Source of the DNA: Paracoccaceae bacterium | Lineage (GTDB): Bacteria > Pseudomonadota > Alphaproteobacteria > Rhodobacterales > Rhodobacteraceae | Assembly (NCBI GenBank): GCA_015487165.1 | Contig: WFQE01000267.1 | Location: forward strand, 1 to 40,397 | Reading direction: 5' to 3' | Length of the DNA: 40,397 nucleotides | Shown here: piece after piece, positions 5,863 to 16,785 of the stretch | Position numbering within the stretch: the stretch's first letter is position 1 | How the letters are laid out: every line of letters starts with the position of its first letter | Notes under the pieces: generated by a model | The model's input: the letters and a program-made list of their open reading frames with translations, nothing else | Database searches by the model: none | What the model was told of the DNA's origin: nothing | Program-made: the position numbers and the translations under genes

Positions 5863-6723
5863 ATGGCCAACGATCTCTTTGACATGAACGCGCTTGCCCG
5901 CATTCGCGGACGCGCCCGGCAGGCTGGCGAATCGGCCCTTTTTCTGCACGAAATCGCCGCCCGTGAAGCCCTCGATAGACTGGCCGAGATTAAAAGGACG
6001 TTTAGCGCAAAGGCGATCGTTACGGCGTTCCCGGATTATTGGAAACAGTATTTTCCCGACGCTGATTTTGTTTCTGAATCGGACACACTAGACTTCCAGC
6101 GTAAGGACTACGACCTCGTGATCCATGCGCTTTCCATGCATTGGGCAAATGATCCGGTCGGTCAGATGATTCAATGTCGGCTGGCGCTGAAGCCCGATGG
6201 CCTGTTTCTGGGCGTCATGTTCGGCGGCCAAACCCTGAACGAGTTGCGCAGCGCATTGGCCGAGGCCGAAAGCAGCCTCAGCGGCGGCCTTTCCCCACGC
6301 GTCGCCCCGATGGCCGAGCTGCGCGACATGGGTTCACTTCTGATGCGGGCGGGTTTTGCCTTGCCGGTGGCAGACAATGTGGTTCTTCCGGTGACCTATG
6401 CCAGCCTGCCCGATCTGCTGAGGGATCTGCGGTTGATGGGCGAAACCAATGTGCTGCAAGACCGGCCGCGCCATTTCACCCACCCGAAACTGTTTGCCCG
6501 CGCGGCCGAGATCTATCGTCAGCACTTTCCTGCCGACCAGAACCGTCTGACCGCCACATTCGAGATGATCTGGCTGACCGGATGGGCCCCCGACGAATCC
6601 CAACCCAAGCCACTGCGCCCCGGCTCGGCACAGGCCCGGCTGGCCGATGCGCTGGGAACGATCGAATTTTCCGCAAGCGATGCCGCAGGCCTTGCCAGCA
6701 CCGAAGGGAAAGACAAGACATGA
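5863..6723 (+). CDS. SAM-dependent methyltransferase (NDUFAF5/BioC-like)
   Basis: A 286-residue class I methyltransferase-like protein. The MANDLFDMNALARIRGRA start, the DYDLVIHALSMHWANDPVG block (around residues 85-105) and LKPDGLFLGVMFGGQTL match the family related to mitochondrial NDUFAF5 and bacterial BioC. The canonical glycine-rich SAM motif I is degenerate here (about residues 48-55), so catalysis is not certain. The open frame runs upstream from 5455 as a comF shadow; the ATG at 5863 is chosen because GGAAAG precedes it. Its stop overlaps the hemH ATG by 4 bp, indicating a coupled pair. Substrate unknown. Confidence 0.85.
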   Translation: MANDLFDMNALARIRGRARQAGESALFLHEIAAREALDRLAEIKRTFSAKAIVTAFPDYWKQYFPDADFVSESDTLDFQRKDYDLVIHALSMHWANDPVGQMIQCRLALKPDGLFLGVMFGGQTLNELRSALAEAESSLSGGLSPRVAPMAELRDMGSLLMRAGFALPVADNVVLPVTYASLPDLLRDLRLMGETNVLQDRPRHFTHPKLFARAAEIYRQHFPADQNRLTATFEMIWLTGWAPDESQPKPLRPGSAQARLADALGTIEFSASDAAGLASTEGKDKT

Positions 6724-7769
6724 CGCAAACCCGCCATATCCCGCCCCACGCCCCCAAGGATCACCCGCCTGTGGCCGAGGAAAAGATCGGGGTGCTGATT
6801 TCGAATCTCGGCACACCGGATGCCACCGATTACTGGTCGATGCGGCGCTATCTGAACGAATTCCTTTCCGACAAGCGGGTGATCGATTATCCGTCCTGGA
6901 AATGGCAGCCGCTGCTGCAACTGATCATTCTGACCAAGCGGCCTTTTTCCTCTGGCAAGATCTATGACAGCATCTGGAACAGGGAACGCGATGAAAGCCC
7001 CCTGCTGACCACGACGCGCGAACAGGCGGAAAAGCTGGCCGAAAAGCTGCAGCAGAGCTATGGCGACAAGGTTGTTGTCGATTTCTGCATGCGTTACGGG
7101 AATCCTTCTACACAGTCGCGGGTCCGGCGCCTGATCGAACAGGGCTGCCGCAGAATTTTGTTCTTTCCCCTTTATCCGCAATATTCCGGCGCGGCCTCAG
7201 CCACAGCCAATGACCAGTTCTTTCGCGCGTTGATGCAGGAAAAATGGCAGCCGGCCGCGCGCACGGTGCCCGCCTATTTCGACCACCCTTCATATATCGG
7301 TGCGATTGCCGACAAGATTGCCCGAACGCTGGCAGATCTGGAAACCGCGCCCGATGTCGTGGTTGCCTCGTATCACGGGGTGCCCAAGCGTTATCTTCTT
7401 GAAGGGGATCCCTATTACTGCCAGTGCATCAAGACCACACGCCTTCTGCGCGAGCGCCTTGGCTGGCCCGAAGATCGGCTGATCTCGACTTTCCAGTCAC
7501 GGTTCGGACGCGAGGAATGGTTGCAGCCCTACACCGTGGAAGAGGTCCAGCGCCTGGCCAGGGCCGGAAAAAAACGCATCGCCATGCTTGCACCGGCTTT
7601 TTCGACCGACTGCCTGGAAACGCTGGAAGAAATCCGCGTCGAGATAAAGGATGCCTTTCTGAAGGCCGGCGGCGAAGAGTTCACCTATATCCCCTGCCTC
7701 AACGCGGATGACCCGCATATCGACATGATGGCCGAAATTGTGGATGCGAATCTGGCCGGCTGGGTGTGA
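6720..7769 (+). CDS. hemH: Ferrochelatase
   Basis: A 349-residue enzyme inserting Fe2+ into protoporphyrin IX, the last step of haem synthesis. Visible hallmarks are ISNLGTPD near residue 30, FPLYPQYSGAASAT at about 149-162, the catalytic histidine region SYHGVPKRY (H219), and the late catalytic glutamate region DCLETLEEI near residue 300. It carries cysteines at about C234, C236 and C298; whether they hold an iron-sulfur cluster is not shown. The ATG at 6720 forms an ATGA overlap with the methyltransferase stop. The open frame further upstream is a shadow of that gene. Confidence 0.96.
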   Translation: MTQTRHIPPHAPKDHPPVAEEKIGVLISNLGTPDATDYWSMRRYLNEFLSDKRVIDYPSWKWQPLLQLIILTKRPFSSGKIYDSIWNRERDESPLLTTTREQAEKLAEKLQQSYGDKVVVDFCMRYGNPSTQSRVRRLIEQGCRRILFFPLYPQYSGAASATANDQFFRALMQEKWQPAARTVPAYFDHPSYIGAIADKIARTLADLETAPDVVVASYHGVPKRYLLEGDPYYCQCIKTTRLLRERLGWPEDRLISTFQSRFGREEWLQPYTVEEVQRLARAGKKRIAMLAPAFSTDCLETLEEIRVEIKDAFLKAGGEEFTYIPCLNADDPHIDMMAEIVDANLAGWV

Positions 7770-7891
7770 ATTAATCGCCGTCAGGAAAGAATCAGTGCTG
7801 GTTCTCCTCCGTAGAGCGGCCTGACACGCTTTGATCCGTCTAAACCAAGGTTGTAGATGGCCCCGGCGCTCGACCGTTCAACCCGATGCGC

Positions 7892-8132
7892 GCCTAATCC
7901 AATGGTATATGCACAGCCGCATCCCGCCACATTGTTTTCACAAATTATATGTTTTTGGGTGATTTCCTTTGCCCACTCGGTAGAGGCCAACTCTTTTATA
8001 CCGTGGGTTAATTTCGATCGCGCGGTGTTCGGCCTAGTTATGTTCTTGCAAACGACGCGGTCCTCCCGCCGCTCGATACGAACATGAACAGATACAAGTC
8101 ACACTCACGGACACCCACAAGGAACCAGAACC
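7892..8132 (+). promoter_or_regulatory. Conserved leader/upstream region of secreted-protein cassette 1
   Basis: These 241 bp align with 14452-14690 upstream of the paralogous gene, starting at a shared GCCTAATC (7892 and 14452). Both copies have a CCAyA motif exactly 35 bp later and an AT-rich stretch including TTTTGG and CTTTG. The highest identity is the block 8029-8072 (43 of 44 bp). AAGGAAC before the ATG at 8133 is the ribosome binding site. The promoter must lie in here, but no hexamer pair is good enough to call. The part from 7770 to 7891 holds nothing I recognise. Confidence 0.7.
8029..8072 (+). repeat. 44-bp near-identical element with CCTCC-loop hairpin, copy 1
   Basis: Matches 14589-14632 at 43 of 44 positions (A versus C at 8040/14600). 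Its 3' end, 8057-8072, folds as GCGG/CCGC around the 8-nt loop UCCUCCCG. The loop carries CCUCC, the same core as the anti-Shine-Dalgarno end of 16S rRNA. Such conservation in non-coding sequence, against only patchy similarity around it, implies a selected or recently converted regulatory element. Confidence 0.8.
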
Positions 8133-8621
8133 ATGAAATCGATCTTTATCACTTCGGCAGTTGCCGCGATCATCGCCACCTCCGGGCTGGCGGTTCAGGC
8201 GCAAACGGCAGCGACAACAACTACTCCTGCAGCAACGACGCCTGCGGCGACGGGTGCGGCCACCACGCCCGCGACAACCGCGCCGGCTACACCGGCTGCC
8301 ACTACCCCGGCAACAACCGCGCCGGCTGCAACTACTCCGGCCGCAACCGCACCGGCAACAACGGCCCCGACGACAACGGCACCTGCTGCCCCGACCGGCA
8401 ACCCCCTGCTCAAGAAGAAAACCGTTCTGGGCGCGACCGGAACCACAGCTGCTACAGCCACCAACACCGGTGACGATGACCACGACAATGGTGGTGAAGA
8501 TCACGATGGCGGTAACGGCGGTGGCGACAATGGTGGTGGTGACCACGACGGCGGCGGCAACGGCGGCGGCGAAGGTGGTGGCGACCACGACGGTGGCGGC
8601 GAAGGTGGCCACGACGACTAA
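8133..8621 (+). CDS. Secreted low-complexity protein, Thr/Ala/Pro-rich then Gly/Asp/His-rich (paralog 1)
   Basis: A 162-residue protein of unknown function. Residues 1-23 are a signal peptide ending VQA before QT. Residues 24-88 are Ala/Thr/Pro repeats; residues 90-96 are NPLLKKK, then TGTT and ATNTG; residues 113-162 are Gly with DHD, GED and GEG repeats. The tail is acidic with several histidines, so metal binding is possible but unproven. The gene at 14691 shares the signal peptide length, the NPLLKKK core, TGTT-A-ATNTG and an acidic Gly-rich tail. Both have homologous leaders and terminators. The real frame is favoured over two overlapping alternatives because it alone has a signal peptide, the shared core and the AAGGA site. 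Export, then exposure at the cell surface or release, is inference. Confidence 0.82.
   Translation: MKSIFITSAVAAIIATSGLAVQAQTAATTTTPAATTPAATGAATTPATTAPATPAATTPATTAPAATTPAATAPATTAPTTTAPAAPTGNPLLKKKTVLGATGTTAATATNTGDDDHDNGGEDHDGGNGGGDNGGGDHDGGGNGGGEGGGDHDGGGEGGHDD
8214..8400 (+). repeat. Degenerate tandem repeats encoding Thr/Ala/Pro tract
   Basis: Short imperfect repeats of ACN-CCN-GCN type codons encode the PAATTPATTAP-like tract of the secreted protein. The variants (PAATTP, PATTAP, PAATAP) are not identical at the DNA level, so this is an older, drifted repeat rather than a fresh slippage expansion. The paralog at 14691 has only a short counterpart of about 15 residues. Confidence 0.7.
8466..8619 (+). 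repeat. Imperfect repeats encoding Gly-rich DHDGG tail
   Basis: Repeated GGT/GGC glycine codons interspersed with GAC CAC GAC (DHD) encode the tail of the first secreted protein. DHDGG recurs at about residues 123, 137 and 151, roughly every 14 residues. In the paralog the corresponding tail uses EGG repeats and no histidine. Confidence 0.7.
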
Positions 8622-8665
8622 GCACCGCTCAGATAGCAATAACAGGCAGGCCTAAGAGCCCTCGA

Positions 8666-8700
8666 GGCATCCCCGGGAAACTGGGGGTGCCTTTTTCTTT
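8666..8700 (+). terminator. Rho-independent terminator of secreted-protein cassette 1
   Basis: GGCATCCCC (8666-8674) pairs with GGGGGTGCC (8683-8691) around an 8-nt loop, with one G-U pair, followed by TTTTTCTTT. The core CCCCGGGAAAC-GGGGGTG is shared with the hairpin after the paralogous gene at 15004-15027. Confidence 0.9.
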
Positions 8701-14312: not shown

Positions 14313-14451
14313 CCGCGGCGTCTGGTGGCTCGGGCGGGGTGGCATAACCGATTCGTCAACGTTGTCGATCTGATCAACAAGTCGGACGTCGCAGGCCCGC
14401 CTAAACTTTGGGCATAGGCCGCGCTTCGGCATCGGTGGACAAGCCCACCTT
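14313..14451. other. Intergenic stretch, nothing recognised
   Basis: Between the methyltransferase stop and the start of the conserved leader at 14452 I see no convincing terminator, gene or promoter. No similarity to the corresponding stretch before copy 1 (7770-7891) is apparent by eye. Confidence 0.5.
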
Positions 14452-14690
14452 GCCTAATCTGAGGGTGGGTAATAGTCATTTTTCAACCATACTATTTTCC
14501 CAAAATATACAATTTTGGATGGTTTTCTTTGAACGGTCGGTAAATGCCGGCAATCCCCTACCGCAGATCAATTTATGAATCGCCGCGGTCGGCCTAGTTC
14601 TGTTCTTGCAAACGACGCGGTCCTCCCGCCGCACAACATGAACACGAACCAGTAATAACAGACCAACAGAAACCCGAAAGGAACCACACT
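14452..14690 (+). promoter_or_regulatory. Conserved leader/upstream region of secreted-protein cassette 2
   Basis: These 239 bp are homologous to 7892-8132: shared GCCTAATC, CCATA 35 bp later, then a TTTTGGATGGTTTTCTTTG segment resembling TTTTGGGTGATTTCCTTTG in copy 1, then TCGGTA. The near-identical 44-bp block follows at 14589-14632. AAAGGAAC before the ATG at 14691 is the ribosome binding site. Near-equal length (239 versus 241 bp) and few indels argue for a duplicated leader under selection. Confidence 0.7.
14589..14632 (+). repeat. 44-bp near-identical element with CCTCC-loop hairpin, copy 2
   Basis: Second copy of the element at 8029-8072, differing at one base. The hairpin GCGG/CCGC with loop UCCUCCCG is at 14617-14632, 58 bp upstream of the start codon (60 bp in copy 1). 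Confidence 0.8.
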
Positions 14691-14966
14691 ATGAAAACCC
14701 TCATGATCTCTTCCGCCATCGCAGTCGCTCTTGCCGCTTCGGCCTTCTCGGTCAGCGCCCAGACCGCCACAGGTAACGCTGCCGCGCCCGCGACTCAGCC
14801 GGCGGCTCAGACGAAAAACCCGCTGCTGAAGAAGAAAGTTCTGAAAACAACGGGCACGACGAAAGCCAAGGCCACCAATACCGGTGAAAACGAAGGCAGC
14901 GAAGGTCGTGAAGGCGGCGAAGGTGGTGAGGGCGGTGAAGGTGGCGCCGGCGGCGACAGCAACTGA
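14691..14966 (+). CDS. Secreted low-complexity protein, NPLLKKK core and Glu/Gly-rich tail (paralog 2)
   Basis: A 91-residue protein of unknown function and shorter paralog of the gene at 8133. Residues 1-23 are a signal peptide ending VSA before QT, the same cut position and next residues as paralog 1. A short Ala/Gln/Pro tract (about 26-42) precedes NPLLKKK (43-49), then VLKTTGTTKAKATNTGE. The tail (about 66-91) is EGG repeats, with no histidine. The core keeps a basic patch between a neutral disordered stretch and an acidic glycine-rich one. Length differences lie mainly in the two repeat tracts. AAAGGAAC gives a good ribosome site. Confidence 0.82.
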   Translation: MKTLMISSAIAVALAASAFSVSAQTATGNAAAPATQPAAQTKNPLLKKKVLKTTGTTKAKATNTGENEGSEGREGGEGGEGGEGGAGGDSN

Positions 14967-15003: not shown

Positions 15004-15036
15004 CGCACCCCCGGGAAACCGGGGGTGTCGCTATTT
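15004..15036 (+). terminator. Terminator-like hairpin of secreted-protein cassette 2
   Basis: CACCCCC (15006-15012) pairs with GGGGGTG (15021-15027) around loop GGGAAACC. The stem can extend by a CG/CG pair past a bulged T. It matches the hairpin core after paralog 1, but the following CTATTTTGA is a weak T-tract, so termination may be less efficient. Confidence 0.7.
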
Positions 15037-15067: not shown

Positions 15068-15466
15068 TCACAACAGATCGCGCAATACGCTGATCAGCGG
15101 CCTGTCGGCGGGCGGCATCGAGTAGTTGCGCAAATCGCGTGCATGCACCCATTTCAACTGCTGCCCTTCTCGGGGCTGCACGATCCCTTTCCACTTGCGA
15201 CAGACGAATACGGGCATCAGCAGGTGGAAATCATCATAAGAGTGGCTGGCAAAGGTCAGGGGCGCAAGGCAGCTTTCCCAGGTATCGATGCCCAGCTCTT
15301 CATGCAGCTCGCGGATCAGCGCCGCTTCGGGGGTTTCGCCCTCCTCGATCTTGCCGCCGGGGAACTCCCACAGGCCGGCCATGCTCTTGCCCTCGGGCCT
15401 GCGCGCCAAAAGAACCCGCCCCTCGGCATCGACAAGGGCCACGGCGGAAACCAGAATGATTTTCAC
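15068..15466 (-). CDS. mutT: 8-oxo-dGTP diphosphatase, MutT-type Nudix hydrolase
   Basis: A 132-residue Nudix enzyme that clears oxidised dGTP and so prevents A-C transversions. The start VSAVALVDAEGRVLLARRPEGK and WEFPGGK, then a complete Nudix box at about 38-60 with RELHEELGI, and the downstream LKWVHARDL element are typical MutT. Its ATG overlaps the argJ stop by 4 bp (15463-15466), making argJ-mutT a coupled pair. Confidence 0.93.
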   Translation of the reverse strand: MKIILVSAVALVDAEGRVLLARRPEGKSMAGLWEFPGGKIEEGETPEAALIRELHEELGIDTWESCLAPLTFASHSYDDFHLLMPVFVCRKWKGIVQPREGQQLKWVHARDLRNYSMPPADRPLISVLRDLL

Positions 15467-16785
15467 GACCGGTAATCCGCGTTGATGGTGATATATTGCC
15501 GGGTCAGGTCGCAGGTCCAGACCCGCGCTGCACCAGCGCCCAGACCCAGATCAACGCCAATCACGATTTCAGCGTTTTTCATATATCGCGCGCCGGCATC
15601 TTCGCTGTAGGTCGGGGCAACCCATCCGTTTTCGGCAACGATGATTTCACCAAAACGAATGGTGATGCGATCCCGGTCCGCCTTTGCGCCGGATTTCCCG
15701 ATTGCCATGACGATACGGCCCCAGTTCGGGTCTTCGCCCGCAACTGCCGTCTTGACCAGGGGCGAGTTGGCGATTGCCATGGCAACCTTGCGGGCGTCTT
15801 CGTTGCTGTCGGCCCCTGTCACCGCGACCTCGACGAATTTCGTCGCGCCTTCGCCATCGCGCACCACCTGGTGTGCAAGGTCCAGCATCACCTTGCCGAG
15901 GGCCTGTGAAAACTGCTGGCCGCTTTCGCTGTCGGCGTCACCTATCTCGACACCCGATGCACCCGTTGCCGCCAGCACAAGGCTGTCAGAGGTCGAGGTG
16001 TCGCTATCGACGGTGATGCAGTTAAAGCTAGTGTCATTCAGCCGCGACAGCATTTCCTGCAGGATGTCCTGCCTGACCGCTGCGTCGGTAAAGATGAAAA
16101 CAAGCATGGTTGCCATGTCGGGCGCAATCATCCCCGAGCCCTTGGCAAAGCCGGCGATGCGCACAGTCTTTTCGCCGATCTCGACCTCGGCGGACGCACC
16201 CTTGGCAAAGGTGTCGGTCGTCATGATGGCGTGTGCTGCCTTTTCAGCGGCATCCGGGGAAAGATTTTCCTTCAACTGCTCGATTACCACCGTGACGCGT
16301 TCGAAAGGCAGCGGTTCACCGATCACCCCGGTCGAGGCCGAAAAGACATGGTCCTGCGGAATGCCCAGCGCCGTGCCGACCGCGCCGGTTACCTTGTCAA
16401 CCGCCTCGAATCCCACGGCGCCGGTAAAGGCGTTGGCGTTGCCCGAATTGACGATGATGGCAAAGCCCGCCTTGTCGGCAGCGCCTTCTTTCAGCGCGGC
16501 CAGTTTCTTTTGGCAGTCAAGAACCGGTGCCGCGCGGGTGGATGAACGGGTAAACACCCCTGCAAGCGTGCTGCCCGGCGCGATCTCGGCCAGCATCACG
16601 TCATCGCGATCCTGATATTTGATACCGGCAGCGGCAGCGGCAAAGCGCACGCCCCGGATCACCGGCAGATCGGGAAACCGCTCGGGTGCAAGAGGTGAAA
16701 CCTTGTGCGGGGTGCCAAGCAGCGAATCGATTTCGTCGCGGGCCTGTTTCAGCTTGCGCCTGAGGCGCTGCAGCTTTTTCCGCAT
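15463..16785 (-). CDS. argJ: Bifunctional ornithine acetyltransferase / N-acetylglutamate synthase, with N-terminal coiled-coil extension
   Basis: ArgJ moves acetyl from N-acetylornithine to glutamate and, in bifunctional forms, also makes N-acetylglutamate, for arginine synthesis. The self-cleavage motif MATML is present (SGMIAPDMATMLVF), whose Thr becomes the catalytic N-terminus, along with the early GVFTRSSTRAAPV block. The ordinary family start is near VSPLAP. Here 28 more residues precede it from the ATG at 16785 (440 residues), or 48 from a TTG at 16845 that has GGGGG 5 nt upstream. The added segment is basic and heptad-like (KKLQRLRRKLKQARDEID). I use the ATG, but the true start is undecided. 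Confidence 0.9.
   Translation of the reverse strand: MRKKLQRLRRKLKQARDEIDSLLGTPHKVSPLAPERFPDLPVIRGVRFAAAAAGIKYQDRDDVMLAEIAPGSTLAGVFTRSSTRAAPVLDCQKKLAALKEGAADKAGFAIIVNSGNANAFTGAVGFEAVDKVTGAVGTALGIPQDHVFSASTGVIGEPLPFERVTVVIEQLKENLSPDAAEKAAHAIMTTDTFAKGASAEVEIGEKTVRIAGFAKGSGMIAPDMATMLVFIFTDAAVRQDILQEMLSRLNDTSFNCITVDSDTSTSDSLVLAATGASGVEIGDADSESGQQFSQALGKVMLDLAHQVVRDGEGATKFVEVAVTGADSNEDARKVAMAIANSPLVKTAVAGEDPNWGRIVMAIGKSGAKADRDRITIRFGEIIVAENGWVAPTYSEDAGARYMKNAEIVIGVDLGLGAGAARVWTCDLTRQYITINADYRS

What the first reader, a model, noticed from the sequence alone, without database searches (positions are those of the whole stretch)
8029..8072. 43/44-identical leader element with an anti-Shine-Dalgarno hairpin loop
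The block is far more conserved than its surroundings and than the coding sequences. It ends in a GCGG/CCGC hairpin with loop UCCUCCCG, positioned 60 and 58 bp before the start codons. The loop mimics the 16S anti-SD and could pair in cis with AAGGA upstream of the ATG (UCCU with AGGA). Alternatively it could be released as a small RNA, or bind ribosome sites of other mRNAs in trans. Rhodobacter CcsR small RNAs are known to use CCUCC-type loops; a link here is inference.
Basis: partly seen in the sequence, partly recalled or inferred. Interest (0 to 1): 0.66.

Follow-up and report, generated by a model that had tools for sequence, protein, structure and literature searches.

The report
Conserved promoter-leader hairpin before secreted proteins
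A short DNA block repeated before a few related bacterial genes looks like the end of their promoter plus a small RNA hairpin at the start of their messages, probably a message-protecting or spacing structure rather than a device that blocks the ribosome site.

Summary
Block 8029-8072 recurs at 14589-14632 with one mismatch; 100 window shuffles gave none. A third copy lies elsewhere in the genome; two same-genus genomes hold three and one. All seven precede small secreted repeat proteins. Besides these seven, a model search of 293 relatives gave only six weak matches, judged chance.

The block joins a promoter's -10-like end, running into an almost invariant 20-base stretch, with a five-pair hairpin (GCGGY/GCCGC). 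The loop is CCUCCC here, ACCCCC(C) or AUCCUCCC in other copies.

Three more distant homologues fold a hairpin at the same place with other stems and loops; only that place shows consistent folding excess. This supports a leader RNA hairpin.

Against a conserved anti-Shine-Dalgarno switch: UCCU is lost in 2 of 7 copies and the distant hairpins lack C-rich loops. However, CcsR/CIN1-like hairpins beside DUF1127 genes of this genus carry the same CCUCCC core, so a trans or protein-bound role is not excluded. Best reading: a 5'-proximal leader hairpin, probably stabilising or insulating the message. The mechanism is inferred.

The parts
7839..7856 (+). Upstream dyad-like site of copy 1 (TCTAAACCAAGGTTGTAG), possible activator site
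   Evidence: 1 mismatch to CCTAAACYNNGGKTNTAG; 6 matches at up to 2 mismatches in the genome, 3 of them before this gene family; the reversed control pattern matched 30 times, so the count alone is no evidence
8009..8014 (+). Copy 1 upstream promoter element (TAATTT, CAATTT-like), 20 bases before TAGTTA
   Evidence: Spacing read from the alignment and sequence
8029..8072 (+). The conserved block, copy 1
   Evidence: 91% mean pairwise identity over 7 copies against 63% upstream and 53% downstream
8035..8040 (+). -10-like element TAGTTA (TA[AG][AT]T[CA] in the family); start site inferred about 5-10 bases further on
   Evidence: sequence and spacing; start site not mapped
8041..8060 (+). Nearly invariant 20-base core TGTTCTTGCAAACGACGCGG
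   Evidence: 99% mean pairwise identity in 7 copies; one base differs in G001
8057..8072 (+). 5-pair hairpin GCGGU-CCUCCC-GCCGC
8073..8132 (+). A/C-rich, weakly folded rest of the leader with AAGGAA at 8119-8124
8133..8621 (+). 162-aa secreted-looking Ala/Thr/Pro-rich, NPLLKKK, Gly/Asp/His-repeat protein
8664..8693 (+). Intrinsic-terminator-like hairpin after the gene
14400..14417 (+). Upstream dyad-like site of copy 2 (CCTAAACTTTGGGCATAG)
14569..14574 (+). Copy 2 upstream promoter element CAATTT, 20 bases before TAGTTC
14589..14632 (+). The conserved block, copy 2 (one mismatch)
14617..14632 (+). Same 5-pair hairpin in copy 2
14691..14966 (+). 91-aa secreted-looking protein of the same family
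15005..15028 (+). Terminator-like hairpin after copy 2's gene (tail CGCTATTTTG)

Best explanation
The block is the junction of promoter and message of a small gene family encoding secreted repeat proteins. Its first third holds the -10-like element of a promoter (CAATTT-like, 20 bases, TA[AG][AT]T[CA]), probably helped by an activator that binds the CCTAAAC-type sites upstream. Transcription then starts inside the near-invariant 20-base core, so the mRNA begins with roughly 8-12 unpaired bases, a 5-pair hairpin, a weakly folded A/C-rich stretch and the ribosome site. The hairpin most likely works as a 5'-proximal structural element that slows decay from the 5' end and keeps the leader from misfolding; its C-rich loop cannot pair with the A/C-rich leader. 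Shown: conservation, position, sense-strand folding excess, stem turnover among homologues, and lack of conserved loop complementarity to the ribosome site. Inferred: the start site, the activator and the stabilising role.
For: Seven copies in 3 of 10 genus genomes, all before the same protein family. The block is more conserved than flanks and CDS (91% against 63%, 53% and 77%). Paralogues are matched by context between G000 and G002, so duplication is older than their split. The 20-base spacing is the same in the seven copies plus G006 and G009. In a local folding scan over 10 leaders in 6 groups only windows starting 0 to 15 bases after the -10-like element stand out: Stouffer -4.1, -4.7, -5.5 and -2.6, while none of the other 29 of 33 offsets is below -1.03. 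The G006, G009 and G008 hairpins have different stems and loops. With the seven copies merged into one of four groups, sense against antisense is -4.97 against -2.67 at offset +10 and -4.38 against -3.30 at +5. In one G002 copy the hairpin is duplicated in tandem and both fold. A review names stem-loops among features protecting mRNA (citing Emory et al. 1992) and 5' UTR stem-loops stabilising recA and vacA messages (PMC7509114, passages).
Against: No start site or half-life is measured. By recall, stabilising 5' hairpins work best within a few bases of the 5' end, whereas about 8-12 unpaired bases are predicted before this one. Folding z-scores of the seven close leaders are modest (-0.44 to -3.24), and in 4 of the 10 leaders scanned, including both window copies, the single most extreme window lay upstream of the block. 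In G001 the hairpin's outer pair has a predicted probability of only 0.23 and the best fold of its leader lacks the hairpin. Sliding the stem by +3 columns gave a slightly higher covariation score than the stem itself (0.133 against 0.114). A plain stabiliser does not explain why the 16 bases before the stem are almost invariant. No sigma-70 consensus promoter is found at copy 1, nor on the plus strand at copy 2.
Confidence: 0.5

Rival explanations
1. DNA-level element: the block is the -10 region plus a binding site for a regulator overlapping the start site, and the hairpin is incidental.
For: The most conserved part is the 20-base core, whose first 16 bases lie outside the hairpin. TTCTGCAAACGAC, one base shorter than the core's TTCTTGCAAACGAC, follows a CCTAAACC-type site upstream of a cytochrome b561 / dihaem cytochrome gene in G000 and G002. 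Antisense folding also shows some excess (-2.67 and -3.30).
Against: The folding excess is larger on the sense strand, G-U pairs occur in the stems, and the hairpin's position persists while its sequence changes. The short match is not rare: TTCTN{0,1}GCAAACGAC had 5 places outside the block copies in 11 genomes, against 2 for the reversed control.
Confidence: 0.22
2. CcsR/CIN1-like element: the CCUCCC loop acts as an anti-Shine-Dalgarno in trans, after release of a leader RNA, or is a docking site for a DUF1127 (CcaF1-like) RNA-binding protein.
For: At 6 of the 9 DUF1127 loci of G000, G001 and G002, hairpins just after the gene carry loops with the same CCUCCC core (for example UCCUCCC in L101, and CCUCCC-containing loops twice in L107). 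5 of 7 block copies hold CCUCCC. One copy has two hairpins in tandem.
Against: The loop is ACCCCC(C) in 2 of 7 copies; here stems are frozen and loops vary, the reverse of the published family. No DUF1127 gene among 8 window neighbours. Rfam finds nothing in the window. The hairpins of G006, G009 and G008 lack C-rich loops.
Confidence: 0.14
3. Cis switch: the loop pairs with AGGA of the gene's own ribosome site and blocks translation.
For: UCCU can pair with AGGA in 5 of 7 copies, duplex energy -4.2 kcal/mol.
Against: UCCU is absent in 2 of 7 (-1.7 kcal/mol) and pairing probability is 0.0002 or less in all 7; the ribosome site is predicted to pair partly with early codons instead. The model cannot score loop pseudoknots, so the probability is weak evidence.
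Confidence: 0.04
4. Recent duplication or gene conversion left the two window copies alike, with no selection on the block.
For: The copies lie 6.5 kb apart on the same strand.
Against: Each of the three G002 copies aligns with its G000 counterpart over the neighbouring sequence too (for the third, the upstream side), so the duplications predate the split, while paralogue flanks have fallen to about 60%. The third paralogue and G001 keep the core.
Confidence: 0.04

Closest known systems
5'-proximal mRNA-stabilising leader hairpins (E. coli ompA type, recalled; recA and vacA leaders named in PMC7509114, passages)
   Same: A hairpin near the predicted 5' end, followed by a weakly folded stretch and the ribosome site
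   Different: Short stem, C-rich loop, an almost invariant 16-base sequence before it, predicted unpaired bases at the 5' end; stability not measured
CcsR1-4 / CIN1 / cuckoo (alpha-r14) anti-Shine-Dalgarno RNAs
   Same: C-rich loop with the CCUCCC core also found in the DUF1127-linked hairpins of this genus; one copy has tandem hairpins
   Different: 5' leader rather than 3' UTR of a DUF1127 gene; one short hairpin; loop varies and stem is fixed, the reverse of the known family; CCUCCUCCC absent

Membership tests
CcsR / CIN1 / cuckoo RNAs | Loop motif CCUCCUCCC in every hairpin (PMC3927594 section 2.7; PMC10746234 passage) | tested here: not met
   Loops are CCUCCC, ACCCCC(C), AUCCUCCC. A search for CTCCTCCC in the nine fetched DUF1127 loci and the window also found none
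CcsR / CIN1 / cuckoo RNAs | Stems variable in sequence while the loop is fixed | tested here: not met
   4 of 5 pairs never vary in 7 copies, while the loop varies
CcsR / CIN1 / cuckoo RNAs | Next to a DUF1127 gene | tested here: not met
   The 9 DUF1127 matches in G000, G001 and G002 lie on contigs other than those of the seven block copies; Pfam on 8 window neighbours shows none
CcsR / CIN1 / cuckoo RNAs | Processed into stable small RNAs | not testable with these tools
   needs RNA-seq or northern blot
5'-proximal stabilising leader hairpin | Hairpin close to the 5' end of the transcript, structure conserved rather than sequence | tested here: inconclusive
   Structure conserved at a similar distance from the -10-like element; true 5' end not mapped; G001 fold weak
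5'-proximal stabilising leader hairpin | Removing the hairpin shortens mRNA half-life | not testable with these tools
   needs experiment
Cis anti-SD leader switch | Conserved complementarity between loop and own ribosome site | tested here: not met
   UCCU lost in 2 of 7; predicted pairing at most 0.0002, pseudoknots not modelled

The most novel reading that the evidence does not exclude
A CIN1-type CCUCCC loop has been taken up into the 5' leader of unlinked mRNAs for secreted proteins, so that a DUF1127 (CcaF1-like) RNA-binding protein, or competition with the genome's own CcsR-like RNAs, controls these messages in step with the stress response.
Probability: 0.1. Interest if true: 0.6.

Novelty: new member of a known kind. 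Interest (0 to 1): 0.3.

Why it matters
It shows how a striking near-identical block can be split into promoter and leader hairpin by looking at more distant homologues, and it removes the cis anti-SD reading as the default. If the loop does talk to the DUF1127/CcsR system of the same genome, it would extend that regulon from small RNAs to 5' leaders, which a loop change in a reporter could test directly.

Tried and rejected
Upstream-peptide reading of the core (FLQTTR...): the first codons read alike in all seven copies, but ATG is present in one only (CTG in six), I see no ribosome site before it, and the tail length and frame differ. Rejected.

Sigma-54 promoter (TTGCA as a -12 element): the GG required at the right distance is absent (read; consensus recalled). 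Rejected.

Covariance model in 293 relatives (run with stricter filters because of the number of genomes): 9 of 293 genomes matched at E<=0.01. Besides the seven known copies there were six matches in six other genomes (E 1.3e-5 to 0.0086). All six lie in open stretches of 642 bases or more. Four of the stretches have a Pfam domain: a tRNA synthetase (L073), an aminotransferase (L074), GatB (L078), and a weak enolase-type domain beside, not over, the match (L077). The open stretches of L075 and L076 had none. Taken as chance. In some searches L077 was first tested at the wrong place; correct this.

18-mer with one mismatch in 295 family genomes: 1 of 295, the own genome, four places, one of them inside a cadherin-like repeat gene on C208, taken as coincidence. 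With three mismatches all 10 genus genomes match, also with the reversed control pattern, so that level is not informative.

Long-range pairing of the loop with the coding repeats or terminator: the best partner differs between copies. Not pursued.

CTCCTCCC near the DUF1127 loci gave nothing; loosening to CCTCC or CCCCC in 5-pair hairpins found the CIN1-like pairs. That loosened search is not specific: the window gave 27 overlapping matches on both strands.

Rows left out of the folding scan: homologues in G012 (L062) and G297 (L063), without a clear -10-like anchor, and the second G008 homologue (L053, run of N). The G008 anchor used (L056) is weaker than the rest and was placed by eye.

Full report
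WHAT IS THERE. The 44-base block at 8029-8072 recurs at 14589-14632 with one mismatch; 100 shuffles of the window give none. Each copy is followed, 60 and 58 bases on, by the start codon of a small secreted-looking protein: 162 aa at 8133-8621 and 91 aa at 14691-14966. They share a signal-peptide-like start, an Ala/Thr/Pro stretch, an NPLLKKK...TNTG segment and a Gly-rich acidic repeat (read from the sequences). Pfam and NCBIfam give only matches below their curated cut-offs.

MORE COPIES. The own genome has a third copy on C346. Among nine other genomes of the genus, G002 has three copies and G001 one. Two G002 contig lengths equal those of a Paracoccaceae MAG, AMOR20_M1370. All seven copies precede members of the same protein family. 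The three G002 copies align with their G000 counterparts over neighbouring sequence as well, for the third copy on the upstream side. In G002 the counterpart of window copy 1 has an additional small gene between leader and the MKSIFIT gene. The family matches in 6 of 10 genus genomes at E<=0.01, and in 4 of 290 genomes drawn from the taxonomic family at E<=1e-5, two of these four being of this genus. The block's 18-mer with one mismatch was found in 1 of 295 family genomes, about one genome per genus. A covariance model matched 9 of 293 relatives, of which G000, G001 and G002 are taken as genuine.

CONSERVATION. Over seven copies the block has 91% mean pairwise identity and its core 8041-8060 has 99%. 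The 78 bases upstream have 63%, the 44 bases downstream 53%, the ribosome-site stretch 78% and the first 68 CDS bases 77%. The two window copies agree at 98% in the block against 59%, 61%, 69% and 56% in these stretches. As the paralogues are matched between G000 and G002, recent copying does not explain this.

PROMOTER HALF. A CAATTT-like element lies 20 bases before TA[AG][AT]T[CA] in the seven copies and in the more distant homologues G006 and G009; the G008 homologue does not fit this spacing clearly. The exact pattern CAATTT-N16-20-TAAATC gave six matches in six genomes searched, and the reversed control gave two. The three with a spacer of 20 (G000 copy 3, G006, G009) all lie before this gene family; the other three have spacers of 17 or 19. 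CCTAAAC-type sites lie further upstream. A plain sigma-70 consensus scan finds nothing on the plus strand here.

HAIRPIN HALF. The best drawing is five pairs, GCGGY/GCCGC. The loop is CCUCCC in four copies, ACCCCCC or ACCCCC in two (one with the hairpin doubled), and AUCCUCCC in one. Within these seven, four pairs never vary and one changes U-G to C-G, so there is no compensatory change; a control with the 3' side slid by three columns scored slightly higher on covariation (0.133 against 0.114), so within the seven nothing supports the stem beyond its foldability. In G001 the hairpin is not in the best fold of the leader (outer pair 0.23). G006, G009 and G008 fold hairpins with other stems and loops at the same place. 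A scan of 34-base windows over ten leaders in six groups shows consistent folding excess only at offsets 0 to +15 after the -10-like element: Stouffer -4.14, -4.73, -5.50 and -2.61, none of the other 29 offsets below -1.03. For 4 of 10 single leaders, both window copies among them, the most extreme window lies upstream, at offsets that differ between them. Merging the seven related copies into one group gives -4.97 for the sense and -2.67 for the antisense strand at +10, and -4.38 and -3.30 at +5. The anchors were set knowing the sequences, and the G008 anchor is weak, so these numbers are indicative.

THE ANTI-SD IDEA. UCCU in the loop could pair with AGGA before the start codon in five of seven copies at -4.2 kcal/mol. 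The two copies with A/C loops reach only -1.7, and the ensemble probability is 0.0002 or less in all seven, with pseudoknots not modelled. Cis blocking is therefore not a conserved feature.

THE CcsR IDEA. Six of the nine DUF1127 loci of G000, G001 and G002 have paired, long-stemmed hairpins just after the gene, with loops containing CCUCCC. This is like the published CIN1/CcsR arrangement (PMC10253847, passages; PMC8625941, passages; PMC3927594, section 2.7; PMC10746234, passages). The papers by Reinkensmeier and Giegerich and by Billenkamp were not read; the first is not held. The block shares the loop core but not the fixed-loop, variable-stem pattern, the place in the message or the neighbour gene. 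It works like them only if trans action is shown.

CONCLUSION. The most economical account is a promoter running into a short structured leader: near-invariant transcription-start region, 5'-proximal hairpin, weakly folded A/C-rich stretch, ribosome site. The stabilising or insulating role is inferred from position and from known examples (PMC7509114, passages). What remains unexplained is the near-perfect conservation of TGTTCTTGCAAACGAC before the stem, which hints at an additional DNA-level or RNA-level partner. Two narrow literature searches, for a C-rich-loop leader of this kind and for this protein family, returned no paper at the term thresholds used.

Noticed in passing
L101:1680-1765 and L107:1655-1730 (own genome, contigs C237 and C308): CIN1/CcsR-like pairs of hairpins with CCUCCC-core loops just after DUF1127 genes, with counterparts in G001 and G002.
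   Followed up: partly
L088:725-762 (own genome C236), ortholog in L091: A CCTAAACCTTGGTTCTA site followed by TTCTGCAAACGAC, close to the block's core, upstream of a cytochrome b561 / dihaem cytochrome c gene; by eye about 70 bases there are nearly identical between G000 and G002.
   Followed up: partly
7839-7856, 14400-14417 and upstream of homologues in L051, L052, L056, L062: Repeated CCTAAAC-type sites, in G012 a perfect dyad CTAAAC-N4-GTTTAG, suggest an unknown activator shared by this gene family.
   Followed up: partly
8133-8621 and 14691-14966: Small secreted-looking repeat-protein family of unknown function without a Pfam or NCBIfam match over cut-off; tandem pairs occur in G001 and G002, and window copy 1 lacks the first gene of the pair.
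   Followed up: partly
L010:1507-1569 (G002): The leader hairpin is duplicated in tandem as a 17-base unit.
   Followed up: yes
L007 (G001) against window 6553-7772 and 15092-15661: The single G001 locus has the upstream neighbour of window copy 1 and the downstream neighbour of window copy 2, which suggests that the segment between the two copies was inserted or lost.
   Followed up: no
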